This document shows, one piece after another, positions 6,051-61,381 of a DNA stretch of 64,000 bases. Positions within the stretch are counted from its first letter, which is position 1. Each line of letters starts with the position of its first letter. The stretch is from Lunularia cruciata (lineage: Eukaryota > Streptophyta > Marchantiopsida > Lunulariales > Lunulariaceae). Under the pieces are notes generated by a model, which searched no databases, had not been told where the DNA came from, and saw only the letters and a program-made list of their open reading frames with translations. The translations under genes were made by a program, and so were the position numbers. Where the stretch lies: the NCBI GenBank assembly GCA_948567375.1, contig OX419762.1:34973465-35037464 (forward strand), given 5' to 3'.

Positions 6051-6650
6051 TGCGAAGTGGTTGTAGTCTGGTCGGTTGTGAACTGAGGTGTTTCGGTTTT
6101 GTGTGTTGCTTGCTTCGGTTAGTCCATTTAGCCTCCGCGACAGCATGTTCGATGATTTCTGCTTGAAGGTAGTGAAGGTGAATGAGCTTCTGAATTGATG
6201 TTGATGATGAAATGCACACGAGACTTGAGTTGTTGTCGAGTGAGATGATCGAGGAGAAGTTCATCGGACTGCTAAACTTCAATGAAGGTTTTCTTGTTTC
6301 ATCGTATTTGTTCTCTGCCGACCCGACCCTTTGTGTTGCAAGGAATTTGGATTGAACGCGTTATATGACTTTGTCCTATCAGCTTATGAACTGTGACTGC
6401 GATTTGGGTCGCTGTTTAGTCAGTCGTGTGGGCTGAAGTTTTGTGCCAGTGTTTTAGTTTGGTTCATTTTTTGGAGAACTTCAGTCTGATTTTAACTGAG
6501 AGACAATTCTGTCCTGCAGAAAAACTCGAGGCTGTGGTGGTGTTGGTTGTTGTGTAATTCAAAATTCACGCATCTTGCATTACGAGCATGGGAGCTCATT
6601 TGTGTCGGCGACAATTTTGATAGGCATGCTAGTCAGAGTGCGTTCCAAAT

Positions 6651-9600
6651 GTGCTGAGCAGGACGCTTCGTACGAGCATCGTGCTGCGGGATTTCTTATT
6701 TGAAATGGGTATGGTGTCTGGAGTCCTTTTGTTCGGTTCGACGTGTGCTATCCTTGGCTACTTTCGGCGTCGAAAGCCGTTCATTCCGTCCTTTCAGGAC
6801 AAGCATGTCTTCATAACGGGTGGTTCTGCGGGAATTGGGTACGCTATTGCTCAACGCGCTCTCTCGGAGGGTGCTTACGTAACTTTGGCGGCACGAGGTT
6901 TGGGGAATCTTCAGAGGGCTTTTGATTCTCTCTCTAAGGAGATCGAAGGTTGTCAACTACGCATGCAGATTAAGGTAACTCCATTCGCAGATCCCGTGAT
7001 TTCCGTTGATAATAACGTTCCCAGCTTTAGTCTCGCGATAATCTTGGGTCGCGTTACTGTTGACTTCTTAGTACCGTTTATGTAGTCATCAAAATGGCAT
7101 ATTCAGTCATATTCGGCGCAGCAGTTTCGATAGTATTGAAGACTGAGTAACCACCTTTTCGTGAAGTTTGAGCACTCGAAATGCAGCACCTCTATGTTTG
7201 CATCCTTATGTTCCGCGTTCATTTCTCGTGCTCGCTTTTACGCGGTTTGTCTGCAGGCTGTGGATGCAGGTGACTACGAGCGTATGTCGGAAGCGATCAA
7301 CGAGGCATTTTCTTGGAGGCCAATTGATATTCTCGTATGTAACGCGGGCCTCACAAGGAGTGGTTACTTGGATACGTTGCCCATCGAAGACGTAGAGCTC
7401 ACTATTCGCACCAATATACTAGGCACGGTGTATCCTGTGCATGCAGTTCTCCCTCTGATGAAGCAGCGCAGCCCCGACCATCCAATGTCAATCGTTTTCA
7501 TTGGGTCACTTGCCTCACTGGTAAGTCCAAAGGCGGCCTATACGGCAGTACCCCAGTGTACAAGATGACATAGAATCTTCCTTGACCTCCGCCTCTTGTT
7601 TCCTTCTCTTGATTACTTCGTCCCGGGCTAACCTAGTGGAGTCAAAATATGGCGGTTCCCCGGTAGCATTCTTTTGCTCCAGGAAACAGTCTGTCCAGTA
7701 TTAAGTTGCTGTCATTCGTGATGTTTTTCTTCGCTTTCCTCTTGTAGTACTCTGAAGAATTACGTCAACTTACTCCCGGGCTTAAAGGAAGCCTTTTCTC
7801 TCATGTGCTTCTTATCCAACTTCTTTCAAGAGACAGAAGGGCTGCAAGTTCTGTGATGGTTGAATTGCAGCAACCAGTACCAATTTTGAATTCCTCAGTA
7901 AGCCGTTTCAAACTTAGAAACTTTTATCGCCCTCGGTAGTGAACTGTACTCATACACGTAGTCACTCGAAATCCGTAATTCGTAATTGCGACATTTAAAT
8001 TACGCGGACAAACCAAGCTTGACATTCCCAAGCTCGATGCCCAGATGGTACGAGGGTTGAAACATCAAATGACGGTGAATGCATATTCGTTCCACGCAGA
8101 TTTTAATGAACGGTGGGTGAGCTCCGATTTCCCTCCAAACTGCCAGGGTTTAGAATCCTTTGCCGTGATTGTCTCTAAAATCACCTGGTCCCTTAGATCT
8201 AACCTGTCGGGTAACCTATTATAAATAAACGCATGGACCCATACGCCATTTGAGTATCAGTCTAAGAAGGTTGCTTGGAACCGAAGAGCTGTTGAAATGG
8301 CAACAACATGGTGGAGAAAGGTCCCCGGGAGCTCACTCTTTGGAGTTCTCGGTACTTGTGGCTACATTCTTTGACGTTAGCTGTCATCTCCTGTACATCC
8401 TCTAGTTAGTGAAGAAAGTTCTGACAATTCATTCGGTTTTCCCCATAGTTCTTATGACGTAGAAGAGAGCTGACTTTTCGTGAAGTCCATATTAACCTTT
8501 CTCGGAAACTTCACAGCCAATACTTGGCGATAGCCGATATCACATTGTCAAAAGCCTACGACTTCCAGTTTTGCATGTTTCTTAAATCCTTGGTCCCTTG
8601 CCTCCAGTTTGTTGAATTCTTCTGTTTCTAACTTGCTGTCCTTAGAGCTGAAATCCTCGTGTCTTTCTCCCTCAACAGCATCCTGGTTGCACGTGTTCAG
8701 CACCTTCCAACACAGTGCTGATAGTTTTGAAAGTACAGTTGGTGAGGATATAGATCTTGATGGATAAGTTGAGTAATCAATTGAGTAGAGGTCCAGAACA
8801 TCTCGCTTGGACGTAATGAGGTGGACTATCTCAATATAATAGTCATTAGATGTGAACTTGATTGAACGCGCGCCTTTTGCAGTTTCTTATGTATGGTAAC
8901 AGTGTCTACACTGGAACGAAGTATGCGCTGAAGGGGATCGCAGAAAGCCTAAGATTGGAACTACTCCCATACAGTATTCGGGTTACTATGGTTTGTCCTG
9001 GTTTTGTGCAAACAGCTTTCTTGGACGAAGGTAAGTTATTTCAACGTGCATAACGGCAGAGTTCAAATCCACGGTGAAGGGCATCAACTGATCTCTTTTG
9101 CTTTTTAGCGGCTGTGTTAAGATAAGACACTCACTGACTTATAGGCTAGATGGTTGGTTTGTAGCGTAGCGTATATTGGGCAGATGATTTTTGTAGAAGT
9201 TGCACTGCTTAGGAATATGTGTCTCATTGATGAATCCTGCAATTGCTGCTTAAAGCATGACTTATGTGGAACCAACCTGGTCTCCTAGTTGAATGGCGTT
9301 AAGCACGTCACGTATAATGGACCGCTTACCACGCATCGGTGTTGTGTGCTTGCGTAGCGGAAAAGGCAGATGAACTCCAAATTTTGATGAAAGATATCAA
9401 CATGTACGATCGCAAGCAAGCTCAGAAGCCGGAGGAAGTAGCAAAACGGACTCTTGAAGCGGTTAAGTATGGATCTTCTATTGAAACAACGACACCGGTA
9501 CTCGGATCTGCTCTGCTACTGCTCTCTCGGGGTTTTATGCCGGCTGACTCGATCTTCAAGACTGTACAAGAAATCCTAACCTTCCCACTAGTAAGATTAT

Positions 9601-18566: not shown

Positions 18567-19330
18567 TCAACAAATGGCTACAGGTAAATCTGGATCTCGT
18601 CTATAGAGTAGAAAGTATGAAGAGAAGGATGCTAAGGAGGCTTGCCGGTTGAACCAATAGCCCATGGCCAACCAAGGTAATTGGAGATCCCAATCTCCCA
18701 AGTGGCCTCTCTGCAAACCATACTTTTGCAATCCTCTCTTCATTGTCTGAACCACTCTCTCTGCTAAGCCATCAACCTTAGGGTGATCTTAGGATGTAGT
18801 ATGATGATCAATCAAAGCCTTGTCATACAAGACCTGAAACTCCTCCAAGAAATTTGTACCTTGATCAGTCAAAATCTCAACTAGTGCACCAAAATGACTA
18901 AGAACTTGATCCAGGAACAAGTAAGCTGTCCCTTCACTAGACTTGTCAGGAAGTGCCACCAACTCAATCCACTTGGAGAAGTGCTCCACCATCACCAAAA
19001 CATACCAATGATGTCTCACAGTCAACGGTAAAGGTCTAGCAAATTCCAAACTCTAACAGTAACCCAATCCTATGATAGTTAATGGGTGTAAATGTGGCAT
19101 AGGAGCATTGAATGATACTCTAACTTGGTCACAAACCACACATCTGGCAACAAACTGTTGTACCTCAGTCTGCATACCGTGTCACCAATAATGACTCTAG
19201 AGTAAGCTATATGTACGCTTTACTCCAAAATGTCCTAGCTCCTCATGAGCATGACAGACCAACTGTGGTCTTTGAGATGGAAGTGGTACTACTCGCACTC
19301 TACCATCCTCCTATACATGCAAAAGGTGTC
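18567..19330 (-). pseudogene. Integrase of the methyltransferase element
   Basis: The zinc-binding part reads HAHEELGHFGVKRT, then CVVCDQV, matching H2C2 integrase fingers. The catalytic core at 19049-18789 has HHWYVLVMVEHFSKW and LTDQGTNF (second Asp). The Glu region lies around 18780-18750 as GLAERVVQTMK. The 18755-18567 block ends SFSSYFLLYRRDPDLP, the typical close of the core. The expected first Asp (in the SLD-x-AGPLP context) reads as Glu in SLEFARPLP. Stops break the frame near 19200 and 18785. This is the second half of a standard gypsy pol, so RNase H precedes and the C-terminal tail with PHD follows. Confidence 0.82.
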
Positions 19331-19729
19331 TGCCCTCCAATCTGAACCGTCTAGCTCGCTAAAGAACATGGTCTCTCTCCTTGGCTCCAATTGTGCCACC
19401 CACAACACCAGTGCAAAGATAGTCCATCACTAAGACATCATTATGAATGTCTTGTTGAACTATACTAATATCTTCACTCTCTGGATCTATCACCTCAATA
19501 ACTCCTCTTGTATGCATTGAGAGAGGTACCACCAAAGCCTCTGAAAATATACACAGAAAGGCCGATGCATGCCAACTTGGCACTATCTCCTCATCGGTCT
19601 CACCATGCCAATGTGCTCCTGTCTGATCCTACTGATTGGGACATGGGTCTACTCAACCCATATGCATTACGGTTCACCACTCCACGTCTGTGAACAACCA
19701 TGAAATCATACTCATGTAAAATCAGAGCC

Positions 19730-20012
19730 TATTGTGCAAGCTTCCCTGAAAGCTTGTCGGACTCTATCAACCACTTCAGTGGCTAATGACAATGATGAGA
19801 GTGAAGGGGTTACCAAATAAGGAACATCAGAAATGTGCTATTGCCCAAATTGCTGCCAAGCACTCTCCCTCATATGAACTAAACTTCACCTTTGTTGCAA
19901 TGTTGGAGCAACTAGCATAGGCCACCACAAACTCCTTCCCCTCATCATCATGATGGGTAAGCACTGCTCCAAGCCCCAACATACTCCAATCAATATGAAC
20001 ATGAAATGGTCA
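19730..20012 (-). pseudogene. RNase H domain of the methyltransferase element
   Basis: The - strand reads HIDWSMLGLGAVLTHHDDEGKEF, then VVAYAS and a YEGECLAAIWA helix, the order of gypsy RNase H (first Asp and Glu present). After HF a stop interrupts, and the later TDH-type motif is degraded. It follows the end of the methyltransferase within about 30 bp, so the reverse transcriptase expected in front of it is absent from this copy. Confidence 0.75.
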
Positions 20013-20029: not shown

Positions 20030-20990
20030 CCAAGGCTCACAATCCAAGTCAAACATTTCAGGTCCATAGCCTGACCTAACACTTGATGCATGGATGCCTC
20101 TTACACTACTAGAACAGCGGTAATACTGGTGCAAAAACCTATCACCCGCTCTCTCTCATCAACGTTGGGCTCCACCAATAGCTATTATTGTGAGTCCCAA
20201 ACAAGTCCTGGTCCTCCCTCTCAAAAAGCATGAGAGCATGGGAAACTCATGAGTGTGGGAAATGCGGCTCTAGGCTGTCCAACTAGGTTCACCACTGCCA
20301 TAGGTGACCTATCAACCACTACCACTATCTGAGATTGACGCCCAACATCCATGATATCATCAACAAGGATGTGGTGAAGTCGTTGAATCCCATCATAAAC
20401 ACATTGTAGAACCTCTCTAGGTAAGAGGTTTGTCCACCAAAGAGGAAGACGATGAGCCCGTGATCCCACTCTAGCTGCATCTAAAATACAACAAGTCTCA
20501 TCCAAGAATGGACCTAATGTGTACTTGCCACCACTCTAGTGCAAGAATTACCTATCAAAGGAACGTTCTCCAAAAGGTAAGCTGGAGAAATGGACTGATG
20601 AACCTAGAGATGTTGTAGTATCCGTAACATCTCTCAAAACACACCAGAACAAGGATCTTGAAGACCCAAACCTCTTCTAACACATGTATGTCCCTGACAT
20701 GGCCATCTAGAAATCACCAAGTGAATAGGCCCATGTCTCTCTAGATCATGTGCCCCTAGTAAGGAAATATCTGTTGGTAGGGCCTTTTGGTAACCTCTGA
20801 CTACTAACATTGATAATAACTCCGGATATTGATAGGCCAAGTGTGCCACATGATGTAGAGAGACTCACCTAGTAGTATCATCTCTCTCTTCATAAAACTA
20901 TCTTTGTACTCGTATACCCGCCTGTAATATCACAACTAGTCCGGTGCTAATCCCATCAAACAACTCCAATATACATATCCCCTCTATTGG
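20030..20990 (-). pseudogene. C5-cytosine DNA methyltransferase domain inside a gypsy pol
   Basis: On the - strand the motifs occur in the correct order. Motif I is ILELFDGISTGL (about 20970-20935), the S-adenosylmethionine site. A stretch IHLVISRWPCQGHT follows with the motif IV PCQ; the catalytic Cys codon is at 20699-20697. Motif VI is LLENVPL (20576-20556), motif VIII is VGSRAHRLPLWW (about 20470-20430), and a motif IX/X-like LGQAMDLKCLTWI (about 20085-20045) closes it. The family transfers a methyl group to C5 of cytosine in DNA. Several in-frame stops and a frameshift near 20515 show this copy is dead. Between motifs VIII and IX the target-recognition part is short. It lies between protease and RNase H in one orientation, so it belonged to the element's polyprotein. 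Retrotransposon-encoded DNA methyltransferases have been reported in charophyte algae and dinoflagellates. Confidence 0.82.
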
Positions 20991-21119: not shown

Positions 21120-22183
21120 CTACTGCAACGCCTCCTTTGAACTCCACAATGGAACATCCAAGGTGGATGGAACAATCCCACTTGTACTCCAAATCCGAGT
21201 GATCTCCTTTGGTACTAGAGTATCCTCTATATGGGCGCTCTCCTCCGACAAGTCACTAGGCCAAGTAACTACACCACTGAAAGCTAAAACTAATGCTGCC
21301 ATGGTCCCAAACTGTAGTGAGCCAAGACTGCCACTACTAAAGCGTATTGGTAGGTGACATGCACGTCCCTCACAAGAATGCCAACCTGGTCTATAGAAGG
21401 TTGTCTCTTCCCAATAGTCAATGCTAAAACCCATGGGGTATAAGATTGCTCCCCCAACTAGCACATCATATGACTCAGCTATTGTTGCAATAGCCTGAGC
21501 TCTCACCACCGAGCTATCAATCTGATGACCAGGCTGAACTTGGACAACAAGCTCCCCACGTGTGATGTATTGTGTTGAACCACCACCTAGAGATGATTGG
21601 ATCTGAAATGGACACCTCTCCACATTGGTCTTCCATAACTCCAGATCGACAATTGCAACCTTCCCCAACATAAGGGGATGCACACCAGAGTCTAATAAGA
21701 CTCTTTGTGGTGTATAGACCTTCCTTGAAGGTCTCACAAATGGAAAATCCCCCTTTGGTTATCCAATAGGACGACACCAGGTGTAAACCGTGCTCTCTCA
21801 AAGGACGGTTTAGCTAGCAACTCCTCCAATCTAGCCGTTGATGCCTGCCATAAACCATTGGTCGCTGAACGGATCCCATGCTCCTCAACCAAGTCAGCTC
21901 CACTATCAACCACCTCTGCTCTAGTAGTAGGAACCACATCATCCCTAATCTCACACAACATGGTAGCCAACCGGAACACTGGGGCTAGGTCAACTCCCAA
22001 TGTAAACTTGTCATTGGCCGTAAACAAAGGACGTTGCATAATCAGCCGAGCCGCCCCCAACATCATGCTAGACTCAATTTGTGTAGTAGTAGGTGGTTGA
22101 CTAGCAAGTTGTCCATCATGCACTCCATCACCACCTACCACACCTTCATTGGGATGTCTAGGAGCCATGGATGTTGTCTGCAA
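21120..22183 (-). pseudogene. Gag-pol linker and aspartic protease of the methyltransferase element
   Basis: Two overlapping open blocks (22183-21734 and 21737-21120) are joined by a frameshift near 21735. The second begins just before RVLLDSGVHPLML, where DSG is the retropepsin catalytic triplet (Asp codon at about 21692). It later has YDVLVGGAILYPMGF, which matches the second conserved strand (LLG-type) of retropepsins in this lineage. The upstream block is a linker with no domain that I recognise. The methyltransferase begins about 130 bp after the end of this frame. Confidence 0.72.
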
Positions 22184-22305
22184 TGCTTCAAATAGTGTGA
22201 AAAACTAGGGAACTATGACCTGTCTCCCAACCTCTCCTCTTTGTGGGTCCAACTCCATTGATGCTCCTCTAGGCTCTAGAGCACGTACTGCACTCCTAGT
22301 CACTG

Positions 22306-22790
22306 CTACAAATGCATCCACCTATGTTGCTCTGCACATGAAGTCCAAAGCATCTCTATTAGTATCATATGAGCTGGAAGCCTCAAAACCCAAATCTGAT
22401 CTCCTCTGAGCAATGGCCATACTAGCCAATCTTTGCTCCAATTGCTCAATCTAAGTAGCCATAGCTGTATCAGAAGTAAGGACAAGTATTGCACCACTAC
22501 TAGGTGTAGATCCTCTACCACCACCTCTACGACCTCATCCTTTGTGAACTTGAGCTCCTCTACTACTTGCCATAACAGCCCTACCACTCCGTAACTCCGA
22601 GTGTAGGTCAAAACATTGGTCACTAGTATGACCAAAACTGTGGCAATGATCACATTGACTCTGTGCTGGCTATGATGCACTAGAGGTATCGGGTCCATTG
22701 CCTTGAGTACACTCTCTCCAATGGTGAGGTCCACCACAAGTCCAACAAGCAAGACCACACTCAATGGCTGATGCTGACCCAAAAATGAAG
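22306..22790 (-). pseudogene. Gag zinc knuckles of the methyltransferase element
   Basis: One frame contains two zinc knuckles: CWTCGGPHHWREC (22748-22700, slightly non-standard spacing) and CDHCHSFGHTSDQC (22654-22613, exact CX2CX4HX4C). A TAG lies between them and another stop follows. They are the RNA-binding part of gag or the gag-pol junction. The longer ORF in another frame (22782-22306) is a shadow. Confidence 0.75.
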
Positions 22791-22979
22791 GTAAGGGTCT
22801 AACTCCATTAGGCCCTCCACTCGCTCCATAGGATCTAGGCTATCCACCATGTCCTCAAAAACCAATTGGGCATTGTCGGGAAATTTGTTTGGCCTCAAGA
22901 GTGCACCGGGCACCTGGCTGCTTGTGCTTAGTTTGTCCTCGGCTTTCACAAAACTGGTTAGGTCACACGGTTTCAACTA

Positions 22980-23460
22980 TGGTTTTGGGACATGACGGTT
23001 CCTAAGAGAGGCTGGGTTTTTTATGAACCACTAGTATTCTATTCAGCTCAACCAGGCCAGACTATTGAGTCGAACCTTTCATATAGACGGATTGAGAGCT
23101 CCTAAAATGGAGCTTCCATGATGCTAGTCACAGGTCAAACATACCAGCATCTCCGCTCTACTAGACTTGCAAAATTATCTTTCCTATCCAGCCTTCTCTC
23201 TCTTGTAAGGTCATTCATTCTCTTGCAAAGAAACCCATTTTCTACCCTGCACTCTCAAGGCCTTGCTTTCCTACGAAAATTTCTCTCCTCTACCCTACAC
23301 TCCTTCAAGGCATACTCCCTACCATTTTTTCATCTGGCCACTGTCATGCTCAATAGCACTTTCAAAAGTTTTTTCTCTCCTTCTGTCACAGACCAAGGCC
23401 ACGCAACCTTCAAAAATCTCTCTTCAATAGTTCACTCCTGTCCAGACCAAGCCCTGGAGA
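22980..23460. other. Unassigned sequence inside the gag interruption
   Basis: A CT-rich stretch without a recognised domain. The + strand ORF 23118-23480 is Ser/Leu/Phe-rich and looks like a product of the CT bias. It belongs to the roughly 2.9-kb block that separates the two parts of gag. Confidence 0.4.
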
Positions 23461-23469
23461 CTCTCACTC

Positions 23470-23660
23470 CTTCACTCTGAACAGTCTCTCATTCACTTTG
23501 CCCAGTCTCTCATTCGCTCTGTCCAGTCTCTCATTTACTCTGTCCAGTCTCTCATTCACTTTGTCCAGTCTCTCATTTACTCTGTCCAGTCTCTCATTCA
23601 CTTTGTCGTCTCTCATTTACTCTGCCTAGTCTCTCATTCACTCTGCCCAGTCTCTCCTTC
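23470..23660. repeat. Tandem repeat, about 20-22 bp unit (CAGTCTCTCATTCACTCTGTC)
   Basis: About eight to nine units with small substitutions (TTCACT, TTTACT, TTCGCT; CTTTG or CTCTG) run without interruption. One unit is shortened (TTTGTCGTCTC). The array is CT-rich on the + strand. Confidence 0.85.
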
Positions 23661-24149
23661 ATGAGAATTCTTCACTGTTGCATTTTCAACAGCACATCCT
23701 CTACATTCAAAATTCATTCCACGTCCACCTCTTCACAACAAACATTATTCATTCAAGATTTGCTCTCCTATCAACATTCTCACAATAAGCATCCTTCCAC
23801 ATTCAAAATCATTCCTTGTCCAGCCAGAGCAACCTTAACACAAATCTACCCATGTCACTGGCTACTGCTTAGGGAAGCCAACCTTCAAAATCTCTCCTAT
23901 CTTGTGCAAGGCAAAGTCAGACTCTCAAATTTCTTCTCCTGCTCCCGCCCTAGTTCAGTCCAACCTGCAGATTCCAACTCCTTCTCTTCTCCATCGTTCC
24001 AAATCAATGACCAAGCAAAACTCAAAAATATCCTGCTCTTGCCACAACCATAGGCCTCCACTCTCAAAAAATCTCCCCTTTGTCCTATCATATCCTTGGA
24101 ATCCTTACTCAAAAAAACTCTCCTCTCCTACAACACTCTCACTCAACCT

Positions 24150-25330
24150 TTGAATTTCTTTCTGCTCCTGTCACAGCCCTAAGGCATTTCAAAAATCCAT
24201 CTCTGGCCTTGCAAGACTCTCACTCAACTCCCGAAAAGTTTCTGCTCCTGTCACAGCCCTAAGGCATTTTGAAAATCCATCTCTGGCCCTGCAACACTCT
24301 CACTCAACTCCCGAAAAGTTTTTGCTCCTATCACAGCCCTAAGGCATTTCAAAAATCCATCTCTGGCCTTGCAAGATTCTCACTCAACTCTCAAAATTTT
24401 TTGCTCCTGTTACAGCCCTAAGGCATTTCAAAAATCCATCTCTGGCCTTGCAAGATTCTCACTCAACTCCCAAAAAGTTTCTGCTCCTGTCACAACCCTA
24501 AGGCATTTCGAAATTTCATCTCTGGCTTGCAAGACTCTCACTCAACTCCCAAAAAGTTTCTGCTCCTGTCACAGCCCTAAGGCATTTCAAAAATCCATCT
24601 CTGGCCTTGCAAGACTCTCACTCAACTCCCGAAAAGTTTCTGCTCCTGTCACAACCCTAAGGCATTTCGAAAATCTATCTCTGGCCTTGCAAGACTCTCA
24701 CTCAACTCCTAAAAAAGTTTTTGCTCCTGTCACAACCCTAAGGCATTTCAAAAATCCATCTCTGGCCTTGCAAGACCTTCACTCAACTCCCAAAAAGTTT
24801 CTGCTCTTGTCACAGCCCTAAGGCATTTTGAAAATCCACCTCTGGCCTTGCAAGACTCTCACTCAACTCCCAAAAAGTTTTTGCTCCTGTTCACAGCCCT
24901 AAGGCATTTTGAAATTTCATCTCTGGCCTTGCAAGACTCTCACTCAACTCTCGAAAGTTTCTGCTCCTATCACAGCCCTAAGGCATTTCAAAAATCCTTC
25001 AGCCCTCAAGACTCTCACTCAAATTTCAAAAATTCATCTCCTGGTCCTGGCACAGCCATAAGGCATCTCGAAAATCCTTCAGCCCTCAAGACTCTCACTC
25101 AAATTTCAAAAATTCATCTCCTGGTCTTGGCACAACCCTAAGGCATCTCAAAAATCCTTCAGCCCTCAAGACTCTCACTCAAATTTTGAAGATTCATCTC
25201 CTGGTCCTGACACATCCCTAAAGCATCTCAAAAATCCTTCAGCCCTCAAGACTCTCACTCAAATTTCAAAAATTCATCTCCTGGTCTTGGCACAGCCTTA
25301 AGGCATCTTGAAAATCCTTCTCTGGCCCTG
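24150..25330. repeat. Minisatellite with about 80-bp units, about 14 copies
   Basis: Units begin CACTCAACTCCC-AAAAGTTT, continue GCTCCTGTCACA-CCCTAAGGCATTT and end CTGGCCTTGCAAGACTCT. Starts near 24219, 24300, 24380, 24459 and 24538 show a period of about 80 bp. From about 25000 the units change to a variant with CAAATTTCAAAAATTCATCTCC and CTTCAGCCCTCAAGACTCT, still about 80 bp. The period is not a multiple of three, so ORFs across it (24369-24821, 24848-25141) shift frame with each unit and are probably not genes. Confidence 0.9.
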
Positions 25331-25639
25331 CAAGAGTCCCTCTCAACCTTCCAAAAAGTTTGTGCTCTTGTCACAAAAAAACCTATTTCATCCAGATCCC
25401 AAAAAACCCCTCTTCTGTCTAGCACTTTCCTTTTTCTCCCAACTCTCTTTTTCCAAAACTCTTTTTGGTCCAGCAACAAACCCTCGATACACTTTCCCTG
25501 AAATTTTTCTTCCTCTCGGTCCTCTCCTTTCTTGAAGAAAAATCTTTCCTTCCTTAACACAAGAGAAAATCCTTGAGCCTACAAGAACATAAAACAACTA
25601 CCAGTTTTCCCATAGCATAAATCCTTGAGTTCTCTAACA

Positions 25640-25972
25640 TGAAAAATTCACACCAAATGGCACCAATAATATGTGTAGTTTATTTTCTCAATGGCAGCAT
25701 GGTGCACTCTGCTGCACTCTAGAAGAAGTCACAATTGTGGATGAGGTCTCCCTACCAAATCCAGATGTCACCACTCTCTCCTCTACCATTTGAGCTCAAT
25801 ATGCTCAGCCAAACCGAAGACCACTACCAAAGTAGGCGAAGTAGCATGTAACAACGTAGCATCACAAACTCTACGTTGCAATTTCCTATCCAATATCCCA
25901 TACCAAAATTGTACTGCTTGGGCCCAATAACTCCCGGAGTGAAATTGATCAACCACCTCATGCAAGTGTATG
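25640..25972 (-). pseudogene. Gag fragment of the methyltransferase element
   Basis: The - strand reads HLHEVVDQFHSGSYWAQAV, then FWYGILDRKLQRR and CDATLLHATSP, ending AEHIELKW. This has the look of a retrotransposon gag (Retrotrans_gag type: helices with FW..L and a closing AL-E-IE helix). It is cut on its N-terminal side by the TG of the E1 LTR at 25973 and on its C-terminal side by the repeat-rich block. The continuation is the knuckle segment at 22790. Confidence 0.65.
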
Positions 25973-26716
25973 TGTAATACCAAGAGCTAGCCATATGATC
26001 TAGATGTGAAATTTGGTTTGGTAACATCTAGAATGATGTTATACATGATGGTCAAAATAGATAAGATAGAAGTATCACCAAAAGAGTACTTCTACTAATA
26101 GGGCAAAAACCAAAGTAGACTTGAGAACTTTAGAATCAATAGTTAGACATATGATTTAAAGGTGAGAATTGGTTTGGTAACATCTGGAAGGATGTTACAC
26201 ATGATGGACTAAACAGATCAGAAAGAGGTATCACCAAAAAGGGATTTCTACTAATAGAGTAGGAACCAAAATATGCCTGAAATCTTTGAAGGCAATTTCG
26301 AAGGCCTAAACGGATGAATTAGGCCTCAAAAATGTGCAGATTCCCCCTCCTCCCTACTAGAGGTAAGGTTGGCCTGCCCTCCTCCTTGCTTTGTCTCGTC
26401 AAGAGCTTTCCAATGGTACCTTACTCACGTGATTTTTAGATTCCTATAGGAGGATTCCCTAAAAGATTCCCTATGGTCAAAGCTTGTTTGACCAACCAGA
26501 TAGGACCTAGACCAGACATGTCATCCATCCAAGTAAGTAATCCAAGGGTGGAGCTTGCTAACATGTCACCTATCTGTGTCCCTAATCCTATGGTGGAGCT
26601 TCCTTGGAGGAGATCCTCTTTGTCTATATAATAAAGAGAAGGTGCTCCTTTGGGGCATCGATTGTTTGAGTGTGCAATCTGTGTTTTCTCTCTTCTCTTG
26701 TCCTTGGAGTATTACA
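25973..26716 (+). repeat. 5' LTR of E1 (744 bp)
   Basis: It begins TGTAATACC and ends ATTACA directly before the primer-binding site. A TATATAATAAAG promoter motif is near 26625. Inside, a segment of about 156 bp is tandemly duplicated (GCTAGCCATATGATC at 25986 against GTTAGACATATGATT at 26142). A related LTR stands at 60303-61019, and a more diverged one at 59609-60274. Confidence 0.8.
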
Positions 26717-26717
26717 A

Positions 26718-26729
26718 TGGTATCAGAGC
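26718..26729 (+). other. Primer-binding site (tRNA-iMet) of E1
   Basis: TGGTATCAGAGC lies one base after the LTR end and is the standard complement of the 3' end of plant initiator tRNA-Met. It marks the start of minus-strand DNA synthesis and confirms the LTR boundary. Confidence 0.9.
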
Positions 26730-26847
26730 GAGTGTTTTAGTCCAAGAGAGTGGATCACCCTTCTTGGAATAGCATGAACTACTGAAACTGAGTAATTTGA
26801 GGTGGAGAACATAGAGTAGTTGCTAGATTTAGGAAGAACTTTAGAGA

Positions 26848-27078
26848 GTGGATGGGATGGATGCACCGGGAGGCCAATTTCCCACACCTAGCTTTCCATT
26901 CTCAAACCCATTCCACATCAAGGTTATGTATATCCAACATGAGCAGATGAGGGTATTGCTAGTTTATCACTTTGGCGTAGAATTCATGGACAGAGTGATG
27001 AACTCACCAAACTTGGTGATTCTACTTGTGGTGATATATGACAAAGAGTGGGATTTGACAATCTATATTCTATCATGA
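26848..27078 (+). CDS. E1 leader ORF A (76 codons), unknown function
   Basis: A short ORF between primer site and gag. Its core (HIKVMYIQHEQMRVLL, then HFG-EFMDRV and a closing WDLTIYIL before the stop) recurs nearly unchanged in E5 at 61105-61377, and in diverged form in ORF B here and in two leader ORFs of E2. Conservation at protein level across copies suggests translation. There is no known domain, signal peptide or zinc motif. It may be a small accessory protein, an upstream regulatory ORF, or the 5' remains of a larger product. Confidence 0.5.
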   Translation: MDGMDAPGGQFPTPSFPFSNPFHIKVMYIQHEQMRVLLVYHFGVEFMDRVMNSPNLVILLVVIYDKEWDLTIYILS

Positions 27079-27082
27079 TAAA

Positions 27083-27286
27083 ATGGATATGAATGTCCCA
27101 AATCCTCTCCCTTTCAATACTCAAGTAGAAATCCGTTATGTAGTGAGGCCAAAAGTGATATTTAGAGATTTTGTGGTTATGAATTTTGGTGAGGAGTATT
27201 ATCAACGAGTGATAGCTTCTGAGGTCCCAATAATAGTTCCAATAGTTTGTGTGCCTTCCAGAGTGATTATATTGACTCTATATTGA
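27083..27286 (+). CDS. E1 leader ORF B (67 codons), paralogue of ORF A
   Basis: It starts four bases after the stop of ORF A. The pattern I-Y-V, then FRDFVVMNFGEEYYQRV and VIILTLY before the stop lines up with HIKVMYI, VYHFGVEFMDRV and LTIYIL of ORF A, so the two look like an old tandem duplication. The E5 counterpart starts at 61382. Confidence 0.5.
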   Translation: MDMNVPNPLPFNTQVEIRYVVRPKVIFRDFVVMNFGEEYYQRVIASEVPIIVPIVCVPSRVIILTLY

Positions 27287-27318
27287 AGTAGACATTAGCA
27301 ATTGAGTGTTGCAAGAAC

Positions 27319-28344
27319 CATGGATCCGTAATTGCAAGAGTTGGTGCAAGGAATGCAAAGGATGTTGAATGAATTCCGAGAGATTAAGATGACCATGGAG
27401 ACATTACAAAGTCAAGTGCAGATCCTCAGGAATGATCAAGCCATGCAAGAAGAAGAGTTGTCTCAAAACCCAGTACCTACAACTGAAGTACTTGGAAAGG
27501 CATCCGTGCCTACAAACCCTATCAACAATGAAGCCACATTGCTACTCCAGATGAAGAAGACCTGCAACATCGAGCCTTACAAGGGGCAACGTTCAATGGG
27601 AGTAGTGGAAAATTGGATCTCGAGAATGAATCGATATTTCCAATTGTTCTCAACAGAGATCACAGAGCATGCTACAGACGTGTTTGCATGTGGGTACTTG
27701 ACCAATAAAGCCCTCACATAGTATGATGCTTGGGAATGATCCATGCTGGCATAGAGAAGGGAGGTCATATGGACAACAATGCAAGAAGGATTGCTGAAGA
27801 ATTTCCAATCAGTGAATTTTGTGCAAATGGCTCGAACCCGACTATGGGGATTGAGACAGAAGAATAGCGTACAAGAGTATGTGGAGGCATTTCTAGATCT
27901 ACAAGTTGCAATTACCGACATGAGTCCAACAGAGGCTCGTGACAATTTCAAACAAGGGTTGAAAGAGTGGATTCGCCAAGAAGTCATGGTGCAAAATCCT
28001 CACACGGTATTTGAAGCCATTGCTTGTGCGCAGAGAATAGTAGGAGCATTAGGTGGAGGTGAAGGAGTAGCTCCACCTCAACATTATTGGGCAGAAATGC
28101 CACACATGGGTGGACCAATACCGATGGAATTAGGCAACCTTTGATTCCGGGATTGAGGAGCACGACCGCTTCAAGGGGAGCGGGGACGGGTAGAAGAACA
28201 AAGAGATGGAGTCCCACGAGGAGAAGGGACTTGAGGAGAACAACGCCTTTGTTACAATTGTGGCCGTATTAGGCACATATCTACCAACTATTGCACTTGT
28301 TTCCTTAGAGGCCCTCGGCCTTTGTTTAGGTGATCTTTGAATAA
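27319..28344 (+). pseudogene. E1 gag, broken
   Basis: It opens with ATGGATCCG and then a TAA at codon 4 (the E5 copy has CAA there), so the start is damaged. A coiled-coil-like region follows (LQELVQGMQRMLNEFREIKMT), then a capsid-like stretch with VENWISRMNRYFQLF and, after two stops near 27720-27755, LRQKNSVQEYVEAFLDL and FKQGLKEWIRQEV. The knuckle near 28250-28300 reads CYNCGRIRHISTNYC, slightly degraded. Gag packages the element RNA in cytoplasmic particles. Several stops make this copy inactive. Confidence 0.75.
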
Positions 28345-28489: not shown

Positions 28490-30264
28490 AGGCAACCTCA
28501 CAATTGATTGTCGTGAATGGAATCCTAGAAGGTAATCAAGTGAGAGTACTGATAGATCCGGGAGCAACAAAGAATTTCTTTGTCTTGCTCTATTGCAATA
28601 AGATTGGGAATGGATCTAGAGAGAGATGGAAGTGAAGAAGTAGAGTTACCAAAATGGGCAAATAGAGAGGATTGAATCATTACCTAGACGGGTAACCCTC
28701 TCTATAGGAGAATATCAAGAAGCAATTGAGTGGCAAGTGATACAGTTAGCTCGTTATCATGCAATTTTAGGCATGCCATGGATGGAGCAATACAATCCTA
28801 TGGTGGATTGGAGGAAGAAAGTAGTGAGAACCCACCAATTGTCAATCATTGGGGTTAAAGAAAAATCACATAGGCAGAAACTGCCTCTATATGTCGTAGG
28901 GACGGCAAATGTTTGTAAGACCGATAGATGTTTTATGGGTCTAATAAGAGAAGTCCAGAGTGCACAACTCGATGGACAAATTCTTGAGAAATTGAAGGAT
29001 GTGGTGGATGAGTTTCAAGATGTCTTTCTCAATGATCTACCCTTAGGATTACCACCAAAAAGGCGAGTAGATCACAAAATTGAGACACTTCCGAGGAAGA
29101 CACCTCCTTGTAAGGCCCCATATCGCCTATCACCTCATGAGTTGGAGGAGTGTAAGACTCAAATTGAGGAGATGCTGCAGAAAGAGTTCATCCAACCTAG
29201 CGTATCACCATATGGGGCCCTTGTCTTGTTTGTGAAGAAGAAGGATGGTACAATGCGCATGTGCATTGACTATCGGGGTCTCAATCAGCAAACTGTGAAG
29301 AACAAGTACCCCTTACCTTGCATGGATGACCTATTTGATCAACTCCATGGATCGAGATACTTCACCAAACTAGACTTGCGGAGTGGTTACAATCAAATCC
29401 GAATTGCAGAGGAGGATGTGTACAAAACTGTCTTTTGAACCAAGTATGACCACTTTGAGTATCTTGTGATGCCTTTTGGCCTCACCAATGCACCTGCCAC
29501 TTTCATGAGTCTAATGAATGACATATTTTGTCCATACTTGGATAAGTCTGTTATCGTCTTCCTGGATGATATCTTAGTATACAATAGCACGATGACAAAA
29601 CACAAACAACATCTACGAGAGGTCTTCCTGATTTTAAGACAAAATTAGTTGTATGCCAAAATCTCAAAGTGTGAGTTTGGCAAGTTTGAAGTAGACTACT
29701 TGGGGCATAGAGTAAGTGCAGAGGGAAAGTATTGATAGATAAAATAGAGGTCATTCAAAAATGGAGTGCACCAGAAGATCAGACTCAACTTAAGAGCTTC
29801 TTGGGGTTGACGGGATTCTATCATAGATTTGTCAAGGACTTTTCTAAGGTTGCATAGCCTTTAACGGCACTACTTGGCAAGGGGAAGAAGTGGACATGGG
29901 GAATTGCACAAGAGTTGGCCTTTCAAGAATTGAAGGCCGCCTTGCTACATGCACCAATCTTGAAGTAGTATGACCTAAAACGTCCAATCAAGTTGGCTAT
30001 AGATGCATCAGGCGTAGCAATAGGAGCAGTCCTACAACAAGAGTGGCATGATGGATGGCATCCAATTGCATATTTCTCTCGAAAGTTGTTAGCGGTAGAA
30101 CGCAACTACCACACCACAGAATGAGAAGAGCTGGCCATCGTTCTAGCAACCAAGCATTGGAAGCACTACTTGGGCGAGAATCAATTTTTAGTCAAGACAG
30201 ACCACAAATCTCTAGTCTACCTCGAGACGTAGAAGGATCTATCTCATTGCCAAATTTGGTGGGC
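28490..30264 (+). pseudogene. E1 pol: protease, reverse transcriptase, part of RNase H
   Basis: Protease remains are visible near 28540-28570 (LIDPGATKNFF, with DPG instead of DSG). A long open block at 28737-29438 carries [39 protein letters not shown] and [13 protein letters not shown] (first RT Asp). After a TGA at 29436 come [12 protein letters not shown] and the active site [11 protein letters not shown] (about 29545-29580). A stop at 29646 and a frameshift near 29735 follow. RNase H runs from about 29995 (AIDASGVAIGAVLQQ) to SLVYLET and breaks at 30264. The FLDD type, the iMet primer site and LPPKRRVDH suggest the chromovirus-like side of gypsy. The integrase is missing. Confidence 0.85.
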
Positions 30265-30943
30265 TGTAACACCCATTTGTGCATGTGTGTGGTATTGTGA
30301 TATTTAGCTTGGTATTACAAGTACTTAAGAGATATTATTTATATAGAGATAAAGGATGGTTCTATATTAGTCATGGTTAGCTAAAGTTAGTCATAGCTAA
30401 GATAGATGGGACCTTACTTTAGAGGAAGTAGAAAAGATGAGCACCACTATTTTGGATTTTAGTGTGTTGACTTGGTATTATTCCTAGGTGTTTGGCTTTG
30501 GGGAAAGAGTTGAGAACTCTTGGGCCCGCAAGCCTTTTTGTTTTGGATTCTTCTTTAGTCCAAGGATAGCCCATGTGAAGGAATCCTTGCTTTAGTGGTT
30601 GGGTCAAGATAAGGGGAATATGCCCATGTGAATGGATATTCCTTTCTACTTTTTGACTTTACTTGACTTTTAGTCTAGTAACTTGAGTTACTACGGTAAT
30701 TAGTAACTTTGGTACGTAACTATTTCACAAGTATATAAACAAGGAGTGAGGAGGTACTCATCATCCTTTCATTTGCAACTATCTCTCTCTCATTGAGTTC
30801 TCTAGTGAGCAATGTCTTGAGTCTTGGAGTGTTAGCCTTGGAGGAGTATGATGGAGTTGGGGTTCCTTGCCTTCTTAGTCCATGGTGCGCTACCATAATA
30901 GCCATCAGAGGTTTATCCTGAGTGAGAGACAGGCCGGCTCACA
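30265..30943 (+). repeat. 5' LTR of E2 (679 bp)
   Basis: It begins TGTAACACCC and ends GGCTCACA. A TATATAAAC promoter box is at about 30733-30741. By eye it is identical over its full length to the 3' LTR at 37388-38066, which means very recent insertion or gene conversion. Confidence 0.95.
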
Positions 30944-30947
30944 TTTT

Positions 30948-30966
30948 TGGTTCCGTTGCCGGGACC
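30948..30966 (+). other. Primer-binding site (tRNA-Asp type) of E2
   Basis: TGGTTCCGTTGCCGGGACC starts four bases after the LTR. It resembles the TGGCGCCGTTGCCGGGG site used with tRNA-Asp by many plant gypsy elements of the Tat/Athila side, with two changes near the 5' end of the site. E3 has a closer version. Confidence 0.7.
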
Positions 30967-30984
30967 TCTCTAGAAGGTAAGATA

Positions 30985-31155
30985 ATGTTCCGCGTCCAAT
31001 TCTACATTAGGCAGAAGGAGGCTATGAGAGCTCACTTGGAGAGAACATTAGGAGAGGAGAGGGCTGAACTTATGTTAGAGAACCAAGATCCATTTGTATA
31101 CCCTGTAGTTCATTATGATGTCTTTGAGGTGATTTTGTACATCTTGTACACATGA
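30985..31155 (+). CDS. E2 leader ORF A (56 codons), unknown function
   Basis: The first ATG after the primer site opens MFRVQFYIRQKEAMRAHL, then LGEERAELML, PFVYPVVHYD and EVILYILYT before the stop. The layout (basic MR-x-x-L helix, G-E, then P-V-x-Y and L-Y-I-L-Y end) matches leader ORF B of E2 and, more weakly, those of E1 and E5. An in-frame upstream extension exists to 30922, but it overlaps LTR and primer site. No known domain. Confidence 0.5.
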   Translation: MFRVQFYIRQKEAMRAHLERTLGEERAELMLENQDPFVYPVVHYDVFEVILYILYT

Positions 31156-31779
31156 GAGGAATTGGAGAGATTGTGTGAGGTGGATTGCAGATTTTGGGGA
31201 TTAAGGTGATTTTGGGCAAAATCTCAAGTTTGAGATCTGGACTTGATATTTCTACACATGATAGCTTGGGTTATCTTTCAGTTAGCACACTTGAAATTAT
31301 TGAGAGAGCTTCTATGCGCACTGGGCTAGAATTTTTGAAAGTTGATAGGGTAAAGTGCTCCCGCAACTGCATGCTCTCTGGAAAATTGTACAGAGTCTGC
31401 CATTTCTTCAATGTTTAGTGAATTGTCCTGAAAATTTCCAAGAAAATTCAGTGCATTGTATCCTACCTGGTGCCACAAAAATTGGAGAGAGATCATTTTT
31501 GCGCAGTGCGTTATGAGTTTTTGAAGTGAGGGGGGTGGTTTTCAGACCAAATCTGAAATATGAGTGCTGAATAGAAAGGTGTCTAGGCCGAATGGCTCGA
31601 TGAAAAGATCTAAAATTTTGCAGGGAGGGACGCCCTAGAGTTGTGATCAAGTGTGGAAAATTTTAGAGGACTGTGACATATTCGTTGGGAGATTTGAGTG
31701 ACATTGTGAGGAAGGGTCAATTCTGCAGAGTGGAGATCTCATGCATGAGAAGTTTGAGATCAACAAAAAGCATGTTTGA

Positions 31780-32277
31780 GTGTTTAGATTCATCTTTGGG
31801 AACATGGAGGGTCATCAAGAGTGGAAATTGAGATTATGCAAGGTTCCCCAAGGGTTTGAGGTGATTGTAGGGGTGGATTTGAGGAAAAGAGAGTTTACAA
31901 TAGAATTTGAAGAGAGTGTTGAGAGGATCCAAAAACCTACACCACTTGGAGGAAAGAGTGAGTCTAAGTGCTTTCTATGTGGAGAGAAGGGACATAAGGC
32001 AAGTTCATGTCCATTGACCTTTGAGAGCAAGAGATTGAGGGAAAGGAGAGGCTTACTTGACTTGGGTTTGCATGTTGGACCTTCTTCACCAAGATTGGGA
32101 GGGAGAAGATCTAAGACCAAGGAGTTGTGTGAGGTTTGTGGAGTTGAAGGACTTCCAAAAGGACATGAGTGTAGTGGAGTAAAAGCACTTTTGGAAACTT
32201 TGGTGAAGGATCTTGGAGAGAGTCTTAGTACAGCTACAGAAATACTACCACCTTCATCAGCTAGTTCTCAAGATTAG
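31780..32277 (+). CDS. E2 leader ORF with CCHC zinc knuckle (165 codons)
   Basis: An open frame well upstream of gag-pol. It begins near MFRFIFGNMEGHQEWKLRL and has VIVGVDLRKREFTIEFEE and a basic linker, then the exact CX2CX4HX4C knuckle CFLCGEKGHKASSC. A second Cys/His group follows (CEVCGVEG..KGHEC), then a Ser-rich end. E2 gag-pol has its own knuckle, so this is an additional nucleic-acid-binding protein, possibly an RNA chaperone, packaging factor or captured gag. An in-frame ATG at 31807 is an alternative start. It lies between leader ORFs A and B. Confidence 0.6.
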   Translation: MFRFIFGNMEGHQEWKLRLCKVPQGFEVIVGVDLRKREFTIEFEESVERIQKPTPLGGKSESKCFLCGEKGHKASSCPLTFESKRLRERRGLLDLGLHVGPSSPRLGGRRSKTKELCEVCGVEGLPKGHECSGVKALLETLVKDLGESLSTATEILPPSSASSQD

Positions 32278-32279
32278 TG

Positions 32280-32444
32280 ATGGAGATAATCTTTCAACTT
32301 ATGGATAAACTATCCATGAGAGTTAGATTAATATGCACTCTAGGATTTGATGTTGCTATAGAAATCTTGGAGCAACCTGAACCTTTTGTGTTCCCTAGAG
32401 TGGATTATTCTCAGATGGTGTTAGTCATGTATATACTCTATTAG
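32280..32444 (+). CDS. E2 leader ORF B (54 codons), paralogue of leader ORF A
   Basis: It starts three bases after the stop of the knuckle ORF. The product reads MRVRLICTLGFDVAIEIL, then PFVFPRVDYSQM and VMYILY before TAG, aligning end to end with leader ORF A (MRAHLERTLG, PFVYPVVHYD, ILYILY). It ends about 70 bp before the gag-pol start. Function unknown. Being short and closely spaced, it could act as an upstream ORF controlling gag-pol translation. Confidence 0.5.
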   Translation: MEIIFQLMDKLSMRVRLICTLGFDVAIEILEQPEPFVFPRVDYSQMVLVMYILY

Positions 32445-32512
32445 TAATAGAGTGAGAGAAAAGAAAAGAGGAAAAAAAAATTGAGAGAAAAGAAAGATAG
32501 TGAGGGGTTAAG

Positions 32513-35500
32513 ATGGGGAAACTTCCGGTTTTCTTTGGCAAGGATGGAGAAGATGTGGAGGCCTTTGTGAGAGACTTCAAGAGAGCTTGCATAGGAAACA
32601 ATGAGAGGAGGAAGAATGAGTGGGCCTCATTATTACCAGATTTCTTTGAGGATGCAGCACTTACATGGTATGAGTCAGAATACCAAAAGAGAGAGAGGAG
32701 AGAGGGGGAAGAGGAGTCTTGGGAGACTTTGACTTCAGCACTCATTGAGAACTTTCTTCCTGATGAGAGTTATGAGAGATTGATGAGTGAGGTTACATTT
32801 CTCAAGCAAGGAGATGGAGAGAAAGTGAGAGTCTATGTGGAAAGAGTGGAAAAATTGGAGTCCAGATTTCGCATAGTGTTGAGGAAGGGAGGGGATGATG
32901 TGGAGACTACAATGATTGGCATAGGGGCCATGCTCACCAAGAATTTTGTGGGAGGATTGAGACCACAAATTAGAAGCAAGGTGAGATATGAGAAACCTTC
33001 TTCCAAGGTTGAAGCTATCAAGATCGCAATTCGTATGGAGGAGAGTTTGGAAGGGGATGAAAGTGATTTGGTGGTGAAGGAGGTTGTGCATCCTCCTCAA
33101 GGCTACAAGTATGGTGGAACTTCTGATACTTTGGTGACAAGGGTTGCACCACAAGTAGTAGTTGCTCCAGTTCTTGCACCTCCACTAAAAGATCCACTCC
33201 AAACCATCACAGAACAACTTGCAGATCTCAAGATCAATGTGGTGCAATTATGGGAGAAGAGAGAGGTGGATCAGAATGTAGGGAGAGGGCCTAGGAGTTA
33301 TGGAAACCATCCATATAGAGGAGGCCAACCAGCCAACAATTTCAATGATAGAAATTGTTTTGGTTGTGGGGGAAGAGGCCATATCCAAAGGAATTGCCCA
33401 AATTCCACTTACCATGGAGGAAGGGGTTATGAGGGAGCCAATAGAGGGAAAGAGGGAGGTAGTGAAACCCAAGTGGCTCCTAATCCCAACAAAGGTAAGG
33501 GGATAGCATCCATAGATGTGGTTGAGAGCAAGTATGAGAAGGGAGAGTGCTCAAACTCCAAGGGTCCTAATTTGGAGCTTTTGGCACAAGAGAAGAAGAG
33601 AGCTTGTTTTGCAGAGGATGTTCACTCTTCTCAAGGATTTACTTCAAGCAAGGATACTCCTATGTCTACTAGGAGCACTCGCACCTCAACACCATCAACA
33701 ACAAAGACTCCAAGGAAGAAGTTGGGGATGGAGGACTTCTTGATCTCAAAGCAACAATGGAACTACAATGTGTTGGAGGATGTTGGTAGTCACAAGGCTA
33801 ACATCACAGTGGGCCAATTAATTGCTTTGAACCCTACCTTGAGAAAGGAGCTTAGAGGTGGTTTGAGTTCTACAAGGAGCAAAAAGAAGAAGAAGGCAAA
33901 AGTTCCAGTATCAATGGGGGTGGTGGATGCCAAGCCAGCACCATGGGAGGCTTGTGAATATGCCTCCAAGATTGATGTGAGAGTGAATGGTCACAACATC
34001 AAGGATGCATTGGTTGATGGAGGATCAGCAGTGAATGCCATGTCAGAAAGGTTGATGAAGAAGTTGGGTATGATACCCTCAAGACCTTCAACATTTGTGG
34101 TGAGCATGGCAAACAAGCAACAAGTTCGACCAGTAGGGGTGATGGATAAGGTGGTAGTTTCAGTTATGGGAGTTCAAAATCTCATGACTTTCCAAGTCTT
34201 GAAGGATTCAAGCTATGACTTACTTCTTGGGAGGCCATGGTTGAGAGCAGCACGCACAACTGATCGATGGCACAAAGGGTACTTGAGGATTGGGCCATCA
34301 AACCATAGAGTCACTGTTCCTGTGACTAACACCACCAACACTTCACATTCAGATACCCCATCTTCTAATTATTGGGAATCAGATTCTGAAGAAGGAGCTT
34401 CAGGTGTGGACACAAGCATGGAAGAGGAGACTTCCACGGAGGAAGATGAATCTGAATCTGATTCAGATGTGTATCCCTTGTGTGCTATGGATTTTGCACC
34501 TAAGCCAGAGGTTTTGAAGGACCCAGATAAATCACCATTGACACTTGAGGAGGTAGAGAGAAGGTTATCTACCCTCAAGTATGGCCCAAATGTTACCAAG
34601 GAGGAGAAGGTGAGATTTGAGGAGATTTTCCGCAAGTTCATCCATGTGTTTGCTTTTAGTTACAAGGATTTGAAGGAAGTCACCTTGGAGGAGCACAAGA
34701 TAGAGGTGGAGTCACATGCAAGACCAATCCGCCAAAAGCAACGTCGCATTAGCCCACCAATATCTTTGGTTGTGAAGGAGGAGATTGATAAGCTCAAGGA
34801 GGCTGGATTTATCTTTGAGGTGGAGAATTCAGAATGGGTGTCTCCAATTGTCATTGTGAAGAAAAAGAATGGCAAGCTTCGGGTATGTGTGGATTACAAG
34901 AAGCTTAATGCTGTTACCAAGAAGGACTACTACCCATTGCCATTCATTGATGAGATCTTGGAGGAGGTTGCAGGTCATGAGAGGTACAGTTTTGGAGATG
35001 GTTATAGTGGATATAACCAAATAAAGATTGCACCAGAGCATCAACAACTCACCACATTCACCACACCTTGGGGAACTTACGCTTTCAAGGTCATGCCTTT
35101 TGGGCTTTGCAATGCTCCAGCCACATTCCAACGGTTCATGAACAAGGTATTTGAACCTTTCATTGGGAAATTTGTGAGAGATTTCATTGATGACTTTTGT
35201 GTCTATGGGAGCAAGGAGGAGCACTTTGAGCACCTAATCAAAGTCTTGCAACGCTTGGATGAGGCAAATGCATCACTCAACCCAGAGAAGTGCATTTTTG
35301 GATGTGAAGAAGGTCTACTTTTGGGGCACATCATCTCCAAGGATGGAATAGCAGTTGATCCTGAGAAGGTGAGGAAAATCTCAGACCTTCCATTCCCTTC
35401 AAGCTTGACAAAGTTACGCCAATTCTTGGGAATGGTTGGGTACTATAGGAGGTTCATCTTCTCATTTTCCAACAAGGCTTATGCATTGACCATCTACATG

Positions 35501-37339: not shown

Positions 37340-37365
37340 AGAGACCTTCACTTTGAGGACAAAGT

Positions 37366-37387
37366 GAAAACTTAGTCCGGGGGTAAA
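37366..37387 (+). other. Polypurine tract region of E2
   Basis: The 3' end of the internal region, after CTTTGAGGACAAAGTGAAAA, ends CCGGGGGTAAA directly before the TG of the 3' LTR. The G-run is the probable primer for plus-strand synthesis. Confidence 0.6.
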
Positions 37388-46915: not shown

Positions 46916-46916
46916 C

Positions 46917-59345: not shown

Positions 59346-59608
59346 GTATTGAGAATAAATGGGTTCTCTAAAATCTCATGGTGTGGTGTGCATGTGCATG
59401 TCCCAAGTACTCATAAACTTAATACATAAAGATACTTGTAAAAAATATCACAAATTTCCATCAAACACATGATATAAAATCAAAGAAACATGACATAAAG
59501 TATTTGGTGTGTGTTTGAGTGCACAAGCATTTATATTGGATGGATGTGCACTTGAAATGAGGTGCATTGGGAGGGTGTGCACCATGCTTGGGATCATACA
59601 TAGGTGAG

Positions 59609-61019: not shown

Positions 61020-61020
61020 A

Positions 61021-61377: not shown

Positions 61378-61381
61378 TGTT

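What the first reader, a model, noticed from the sequence alone, without database searches (positions are those of the whole stretch)
20030..20990. A Ty3/gypsy element encoding a C5-cytosine DNA methyltransferase
Between the protease and the RNase H of a - strand gypsy element I can read methyltransferase motif I (ILELFDGISTGL), IV (WPCQGHT, with the catalytic Cys), VI (LLENVPL), VIII (VGSRAHR) and a IX/X-like end (LGQAMDLKCLTWI) in correct order. Standard plant gypsy pols have no such domain. DNA methyltransferases inside retrotransposons have been described in charophyte algae and dinoflagellates. This looks like that lineage or a relative in another streptophyte. An element that methylates its own or host DNA could hide from, or exploit, host silencing. 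This copy is inactive.
Basis: partly seen in the sequence, partly recalled or inferred. Interest (0 to 1): 0.95.

Follow-up and report, generated by a model that had tools for sequence, protein, structure and literature searches.

The report
Broken plant retrotransposon carrying DNMT3-like methyltransferase
This is a dead copy of a plant jumping gene whose relatives in liverworts, peat mosses and green algae carry an enzyme of the kind that methylates DNA, and often a chromatin-reading finger as well, a combination that could show how such elements use the marks that usually silence them.

Summary
On the - strand at 18.0-25.9 kb lies a broken Ty3/gypsy element whose pol carries a C5-cytosine methyltransferase (MTase) after the protease. 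The domain is DNMT3-type: 33 of 33 PDB matches are DNMT3 or DRM2. Its best named matches are Pol proteins of Calypogeia (E 1.3e-57) and Marchantia (3.8e-55).

Three additions. (1) This copy lacks the reverse transcriptase: relatives of the same order read Gag-PR-MTase-RT-RNaseH-INT(-PHD), and about 1.4 kb is missing here between MTase and RNase H. (2) The integrase ends in a PHD finger that belongs to the family: 25 of 28 rve-bearing relatives have one. (3) The family is wide: Marchantia, Calypogeia, Sphagnum, Closterium, Monoraphidium, many unnamed metagenome proteins. MTase and RT diverged together; one subclade has the MTase between RNase H and INT.

Closest known: KnitGypsy-Dnmt3 of the charophyte Klebsormidium (PMC5890265), not compared by sequence. 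A 2019 paper (PMC6338049) says land plants lack such transposons. The paper listings and passages that I saw report none in bryophytes and no MTase-PHD pairing. Verdict: new variant of a known kind. Self-methylation and PHD-guided integration are inferred.

The parts
25700..25935 (-). Gag fragment, interrupted on both sides
   Evidence: tblastn with Marchantia P0009: residues 187-259, 55-65% identity
22860..25690 (.). about 2.8 kb between two parts of gag, with 80-nt and 21-nt tandem repeats; taken as an insertion foreign to the element
   Evidence: P0009 residues 259 and 299 map to 25706 and 22756; repeats
21737..22851 (-). Gag nucleocapsid part with two CCHC-like knuckles, and the stretch up to the protease
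   Evidence: tblastn with P0009 299-622, 43% identity; knuckles read by eye
21120..21758 (-). aspartic protease region and linker (212 aa open)
   Evidence: 51% identity over 212 aa to Marchantia P0009; no Pfam match in the window; related Closterium P0052 passes PF13975
20030..21000 (-). DNMT3-type C5-cytosine methyltransferase, broken by stops and a change of frame
   Evidence: PDB DNMT3A E 1.5e-6; Pol homologues to E 3.8e-58; tblastn with P0009 through the domain, 51-65% identity
20014..20041 (-). junction where about 1.4 kb with the reverse transcriptase is missing
   Evidence: MTase end and RNase H start adjoin here but lie 469 and 482 residues apart in P0040 and P0070
19650..20033 (-). 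RNase H
   Evidence: PF17919 5.3e-14 and PF17917 3.6e-13 for 19827-20009; tblastn extends it
18570..19500 (-). integrase
   Evidence: rve 2.5e-9 at about 19010-18795; 80% identity over 86 aa to Sphagnum fallax P0041; tblastn with P0070
18015..18149 (-). PHD finger downstream of the integrase
   Evidence: PF00628 9.1e-9, 35.7 bits; same place in relatives

Best explanation
The window holds a dead copy of a Ty3/gypsy element of a bryophyte-type lineage. In relatives of the same domain order Pol carries a DNMT3-type cytosine MTase between protease and RT, and a PHD finger after the integrase. Most likely the MTase, packed with RT in the particle or the pre-integration complex, puts 5-methylcytosine on the newly made cDNA or on the target site, and the PHD finger, of the class that reads unmodified histone H3, steers the integrase to chromatin lacking H3K4 methylation. 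The new copy would then land pre-marked in quiet chromatin: harmless in somatic tissue, kept by host maintenance methylation, and shielded from whatever acts on unmethylated foreign DNA. Shown: domain identity, order, co-divergence with RT, conserved catalytic residues, wide occurrence. Inferred: enzyme activity, substrate, histone state read, benefit. This copy can do none of it: RT missing, stops, frame changes, gag interrupted.
Confidence: 0.5

Rival explanations
1. Self-restraint or host benefit: the MTase slows its own element or silences competing elements, and is kept because gentle elements persist. It acts on the chromosome rather than on the cDNA.
For: Fits the same anatomy; de Mendoza et al. 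raise slower retrotransposition as one possibility (discussion).
Against: Long co-divergence with RT suggests a use in the replication cycle, though it does not prove it.
Confidence: 0.2
2. The MTase acts on RNA, or is a structural part of the pol complex, without methylating DNA.
For: The KnitGypsy domain gave no DNA methylation in yeast (inconclusive by its authors); de Mendoza et al. suggest RNA as a substrate for the LINE-borne enzyme.
Against: No DNMT2 among the 33 sequence matches of the window piece; DNMT3 rows lead the fold comparison; catalytic residues conserved.
Confidence: 0.15
3. The copy belongs to a lineage without RT: the MTase replaced RT and the element moves with RT from partners, so the missing RT is not a local deletion.
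For: In the window MTase and RNase H adjoin.
Against: Type A relatives in which both domains were found have RT in between (P0011, P0014, P0040, P0053, P0058, P0070, P0073, P0082); of the 86 proteins mapped there only P0012, a gene model, joins MTase to RNase H directly in that order. The 120 proteins were not mapped this way. The copy is also broken elsewhere.
Confidence: 0.08
4. A host DNMT3 pseudogene fell into the element by chance.
For: Only the decay of this copy.
Against: The same domain sits in Pol of relatives from several plants and algae, with agreeing MTase and RT trees.
Confidence: 0.01

Closest known systems
KnitGypsy-Dnmt3 of Klebsormidium nitens (de Mendoza et al. 2018, PMC5890265; abstract, sections 9, 10, 11 and passages seen)
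   Same: LTR gypsy element with a DNMT3-type domain, not rearranged as in DRM, inside the Pol polyprotein
   Different: Alga, reported as an independent acquisition in the K. nitens lineage; PHD is not mentioned in the main text (0 occurrences); domain order is in a figure that I could not see; the sequence was not retrieved, so kinship was not tested
SymbioDIRS-Dnmt3 and SymbioLINE-Dnmt (same paper)
   Same: Retrotransposon-borne DNMT; the DIRS enzyme methylates CG in yeast
   Different: DIRS and LINE elements of dinoflagellates, other retrotransposon classes
Chromodomain gypsy elements (chromoviruses) and chromodomain or Tudor gypsy of Ectocarpus (PMC12477816, passages seen)
   Same: A chromatin reader at the C-terminal end of Pol, after the integrase
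Animal DNMT3A/B
   Same: DNMT3 catalytic fold and motif order; a PHD-like ADD domain and an MTase in one protein (ADD recalled)
   Different: Here reader and enzyme are far apart in Pol, which a protease would cut; the Calypogeia enzyme shares 22-27% identity with DNMT3A/B

Membership tests
DNMT3-type C5-cytosine methyltransferase | Motifs I, IV (catalytic Cys), VI, VIII, X in unrearranged order | tested here: met
   Window motifs in order; relatives
DNMT3-type C5-cytosine methyltransferase | Nearest to DNMT3 among solved C5 enzymes, by sequence and fold | tested here: met
DNMT3-type C5-cytosine methyltransferase | Pfam PF00145 cut-off (a detection limit, not a defining trait) | tested here: inconclusive
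   Window piece below it, 11.1 bits against 22; 5 of 5 relatives scanned above it, 29.2-45.5 bits
DNMT3-type C5-cytosine methyltransferase | Methylates cytosine in DNA | not testable with these tools
   Needs an assay
Ty3/gypsy LTR retrotransposon | PR, RT, RNase H, INT in this order | tested here: inconclusive
   PR-like, RNase H and INT present in order; RT absent from this copy, present in relatives
Ty3/gypsy LTR retrotransposon | Flanking LTRs | tested here: inconclusive
   No LTR pair of this element found
KnitGypsy-Dnmt3 type elements | DNMT3 domain inside gypsy Pol | tested here: met
KnitGypsy-Dnmt3 type elements | Groups with the Klebsormidium sequences in a tree | not tested
Chromovirus | Chromodomain after the integrase | tested here: not met
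   Pfam on 6 relatives (5 with RT, RNase H and integrase) shows no chromodomain; PHD in 4 of 6

The most novel reading that the evidence does not exclude
DNMT-bearing gypsy elements are an old lineage of the green plants, from chlorophyte algae to bryophytes, in which a captured DNMT3 enzyme and a PHD finger for unmodified H3 form a read-and-write unit like the ADD-MTase pair of animal DNMT3: the element chooses silent chromatin and methylates its own new copy. The enzyme changed its place in Pol once (before RT, or after RNase H) without being lost, so it is a core function, and the charophyte case would be one branch of this lineage rather than an independent capture.
Probability: 0.35. Interest if true: 0.82.

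Novelty: new variant of a known kind. Interest (0 to 1): 0.66.

Why it matters
Transposons are usually targets of cytosine methylation. Elements that carry a methyltransferase raise the question of who writes silencing marks and for whose benefit. Finding them in Marchantia, Calypogeia and Sphagnum, against a printed statement that land plants lack them, moves the question into land plants that can be worked with: Marchantia polymorpha is a model with transformation and methylomes (recalled). It also adds a PHD finger after the integrase and a large family for tracing the capture.

Tried and rejected
Pfam on single pieces of the window found RNase H, rve and PHD but not the MTase, protease or RT. 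PDB search with the C-terminal MTase piece alone gave only chance matches. No tRNA was found in the window. A scan of viral contigs with the MTase profile returned 19 loci from 84 stretches (24-49% identity in the best segment); by their low identity I took them for other C5 enzymes and did not study them. No LTR pair was found: the repeat at 25973-27563 also occurs at 60303-61872 (80%), so I took it for another repeat that cuts gag. Klebsormidium sequences and host DNMT3, DRM, MET1 and CMT sequences were not retrieved, so the origin of the captured enzyme is open.

The listings were capped: I saw 20 of 99, 19 of 19, 15 of 148, 12 of 45, 12 of 14, 3 of 3, 12 of 15, 3 of 3, 10 of 57 and 1 of 1 papers. 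Passages found by term were read in PMC6338049, PMC12344493, PMC6453930, PMC12477816, PMC9985172, PMC12730594, PMC9915684 and PMC9033089; of PMC5890265 the abstract, sections 9-11 and passages. Supplements were not available. The library lacks most subscription papers, so absence from print is claimed only for what these listings and passages show.

Rows: in the MTase tree, 13 of 87 rows were left out (11 Marchantia near-copies or fragments, P0084, P0085); P0074 was labelled type B by default although only its MTase had been located, and it falls outside the B clade; the method was the quick one, with warnings about long branches. P0085 was dropped from the distance test. The tree used 28 of the 74 rows and 9 chosen proteins.

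Full report
What is in the window. On the - strand between about 25.9 and 18.0 kb lies a Ty3/gypsy-like element in pieces. Reading 5' to 3' of the element: a Gag fragment (25935-25700), about 2.8 kb of other sequence with 80-nt and 21-nt tandem repeats, the Gag nucleocapsid part with two zinc knuckles (from 22851), a protease region (21758-21120), the methyltransferase (about 21000-20030), RNase H (20033 to about 19650), integrase (rve core about 19010-18795) and a PHD finger (18149-18015). RNase H, rve and PHD pass Pfam cut-offs. Stops and changes of frame break most parts; the protease region (212 aa) and the PHD region (89 aa) are each open.

The methyltransferase. The N-terminal piece with X at seven stops matches DNMT3A in the PDB at E 1.5e-6, and all 33 matches up to E 10 are DNMT3 or DRM2. 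It does not reach the PF00145 cut-off; I count that as decay and divergence, because 5 of 5 relatives scanned do. A search of about 5.8 billion proteins, scoring that piece only, found 15 proteins among 127 candidates at E up to 0.01, at 41-60% identity: 12 of Marchantia polymorpha (best 3.8e-55), one of Calypogeia fissa (1.3e-57) and two unnamed (best 3.8e-58). tblastn with Marchantia P0009 runs through the domain in the window at 51-65% identity.

Architecture of relatives. A second search with the Marchantia domain gave 86 proteins among 7997 scored candidates, the query protein included: Marchantia, Calypogeia fissa, Sphagnum fallax, Closterium sp. NIES-54, Monoraphidium neglectum, many metagenome or unnamed proteins, and at the end two fish DNMT3. 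Mapping domains in these 86 (Pfam for six) shows two orders. Type A (my label): Gag-PR-MTase-RT-RNaseH-INT(-PHD), as far as each protein reaches; Marchantia, Calypogeia, Sphagnum and Closterium are of this order, but no single one of them shows the whole of it. Type B: RT-RNaseH-MTase-INT-PHD, with many unnamed proteins and, up to the MTase, Monoraphidium. Of 28 proteins with the rve domain, 25 also have PF00628; the other three are P0040 (ends in a divergent cysteine-rich stretch), P0041 and P0061 (end before the place). A profile search with 12 domains gave 381 proteins among 7996 scored at E up to 0.001, of which 120 were listed, Sphagnum troendelagicum and Marchantia paleacea among the named. 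P0090 is filed under a bacterial MAG; I take this for a misbinned contig (inference).

The missing RT. In P0040 and P0070 the MTase and RNase H matches lie 469 and 482 residues apart with RT between (296 in the gene model P0011). In the window the two adjoin at about 20030. So this copy most likely lost its RT, about 1.4 kb; a lineage without RT is a weak rival.

History. In an MTase tree of 74 rows the window lies with nine rows of Marchantia, Calypogeia, Sphagnum and three unnamed proteins (SH-aLRT 100), and 30 type B rows form one clade (99) (quick method, with warnings about long branches). A careful tree of 37 rows gives 100/99 for 18 rows: the 11 Marchantia, Calypogeia and Sphagnum entries used, six unnamed ones and the window; the split from type B has 99/96. 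The window's own nearest row inside that clade is not resolved. The RT tree of 29 elements plus one gypsy from the same window has the 22 type B rows as one side of a branch, 100/99. MTase and RT-RNase H distances correlate at 0.78 over 28 elements and 0.80 within 21 type B elements, 0 of 9999 permutations as high in either. So enzyme and RT travelled together, with one change of place. The root of the RT tree rests on one distant gypsy row; a single capture is favoured, not proven.

Known or new. DNMT3 in gypsy Pol is known from Klebsormidium (PMC5890265; abstract and sections 9-11 read). Morozov et al. [quoted passage not shown] A 2025 paper speaks of DNMT3 in LTR Copia and DIRS elements in streptophytes and dinoflagellates (PMC12344493, passage). 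Ten paper searches, with capped listings, showed me no report of bryophyte elements or of MTase and PHD together. The Marchantia proteins are in public databases, one under a DNA (cytosine-5) methyltransferase name, so the sequences are public even if the element seems undescribed. I therefore call it a new variant of a known kind.

Limits. Kinship to Klebsormidium elements and to host DNMT3 is untested. Ka/Ks was not possible. Among land-plant sequences the PHD finger was seen in the window only.

Noticed in passing
window 30265-38066: Another gypsy element with LTRs 30265-30943 and 37388-38066 identical over 679 nt and a 1611-aa open frame at 32504-37339: a young, intact-looking insertion.
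   Followed up: partly
window 58649-59351: Sequence about 75% identical to the LTR of that young element: an older related LTR.
   Followed up: no
window 25973-27563 and 60303-61872: Two copies of a 1.6-kb repeat, 80% identical; the first abuts the cut gag of the element described here.
   Followed up: partly
window 23443-25360: Arrays of 21-nt and about 80-nt tandem repeats in a stretch with strong C over G skew, between two parts of gag.
   Followed up: no
window 28644-30223 and 45625-47840: Pol fragments of further gypsy elements on the + strand; tblastn with the MTase-bearing proteins matched only their RT, RNase H or integrase parts.
   Followed up: no
P0064 (relative): A G-patch domain between MTase and integrase in one type B polyprotein, besides MTase and PHD.
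   Followed up: no
P0090 (relative): MTase of this family filed under a Candidatus Obscuribacterales MAG; probably a misbinned eukaryotic contig.
   Followed up: no
window 6633-7085: Open stretch that by eye resembles a short-chain dehydrogenase exon (GGSAGIGYAIA); likely a host gene.
   Followed up: no
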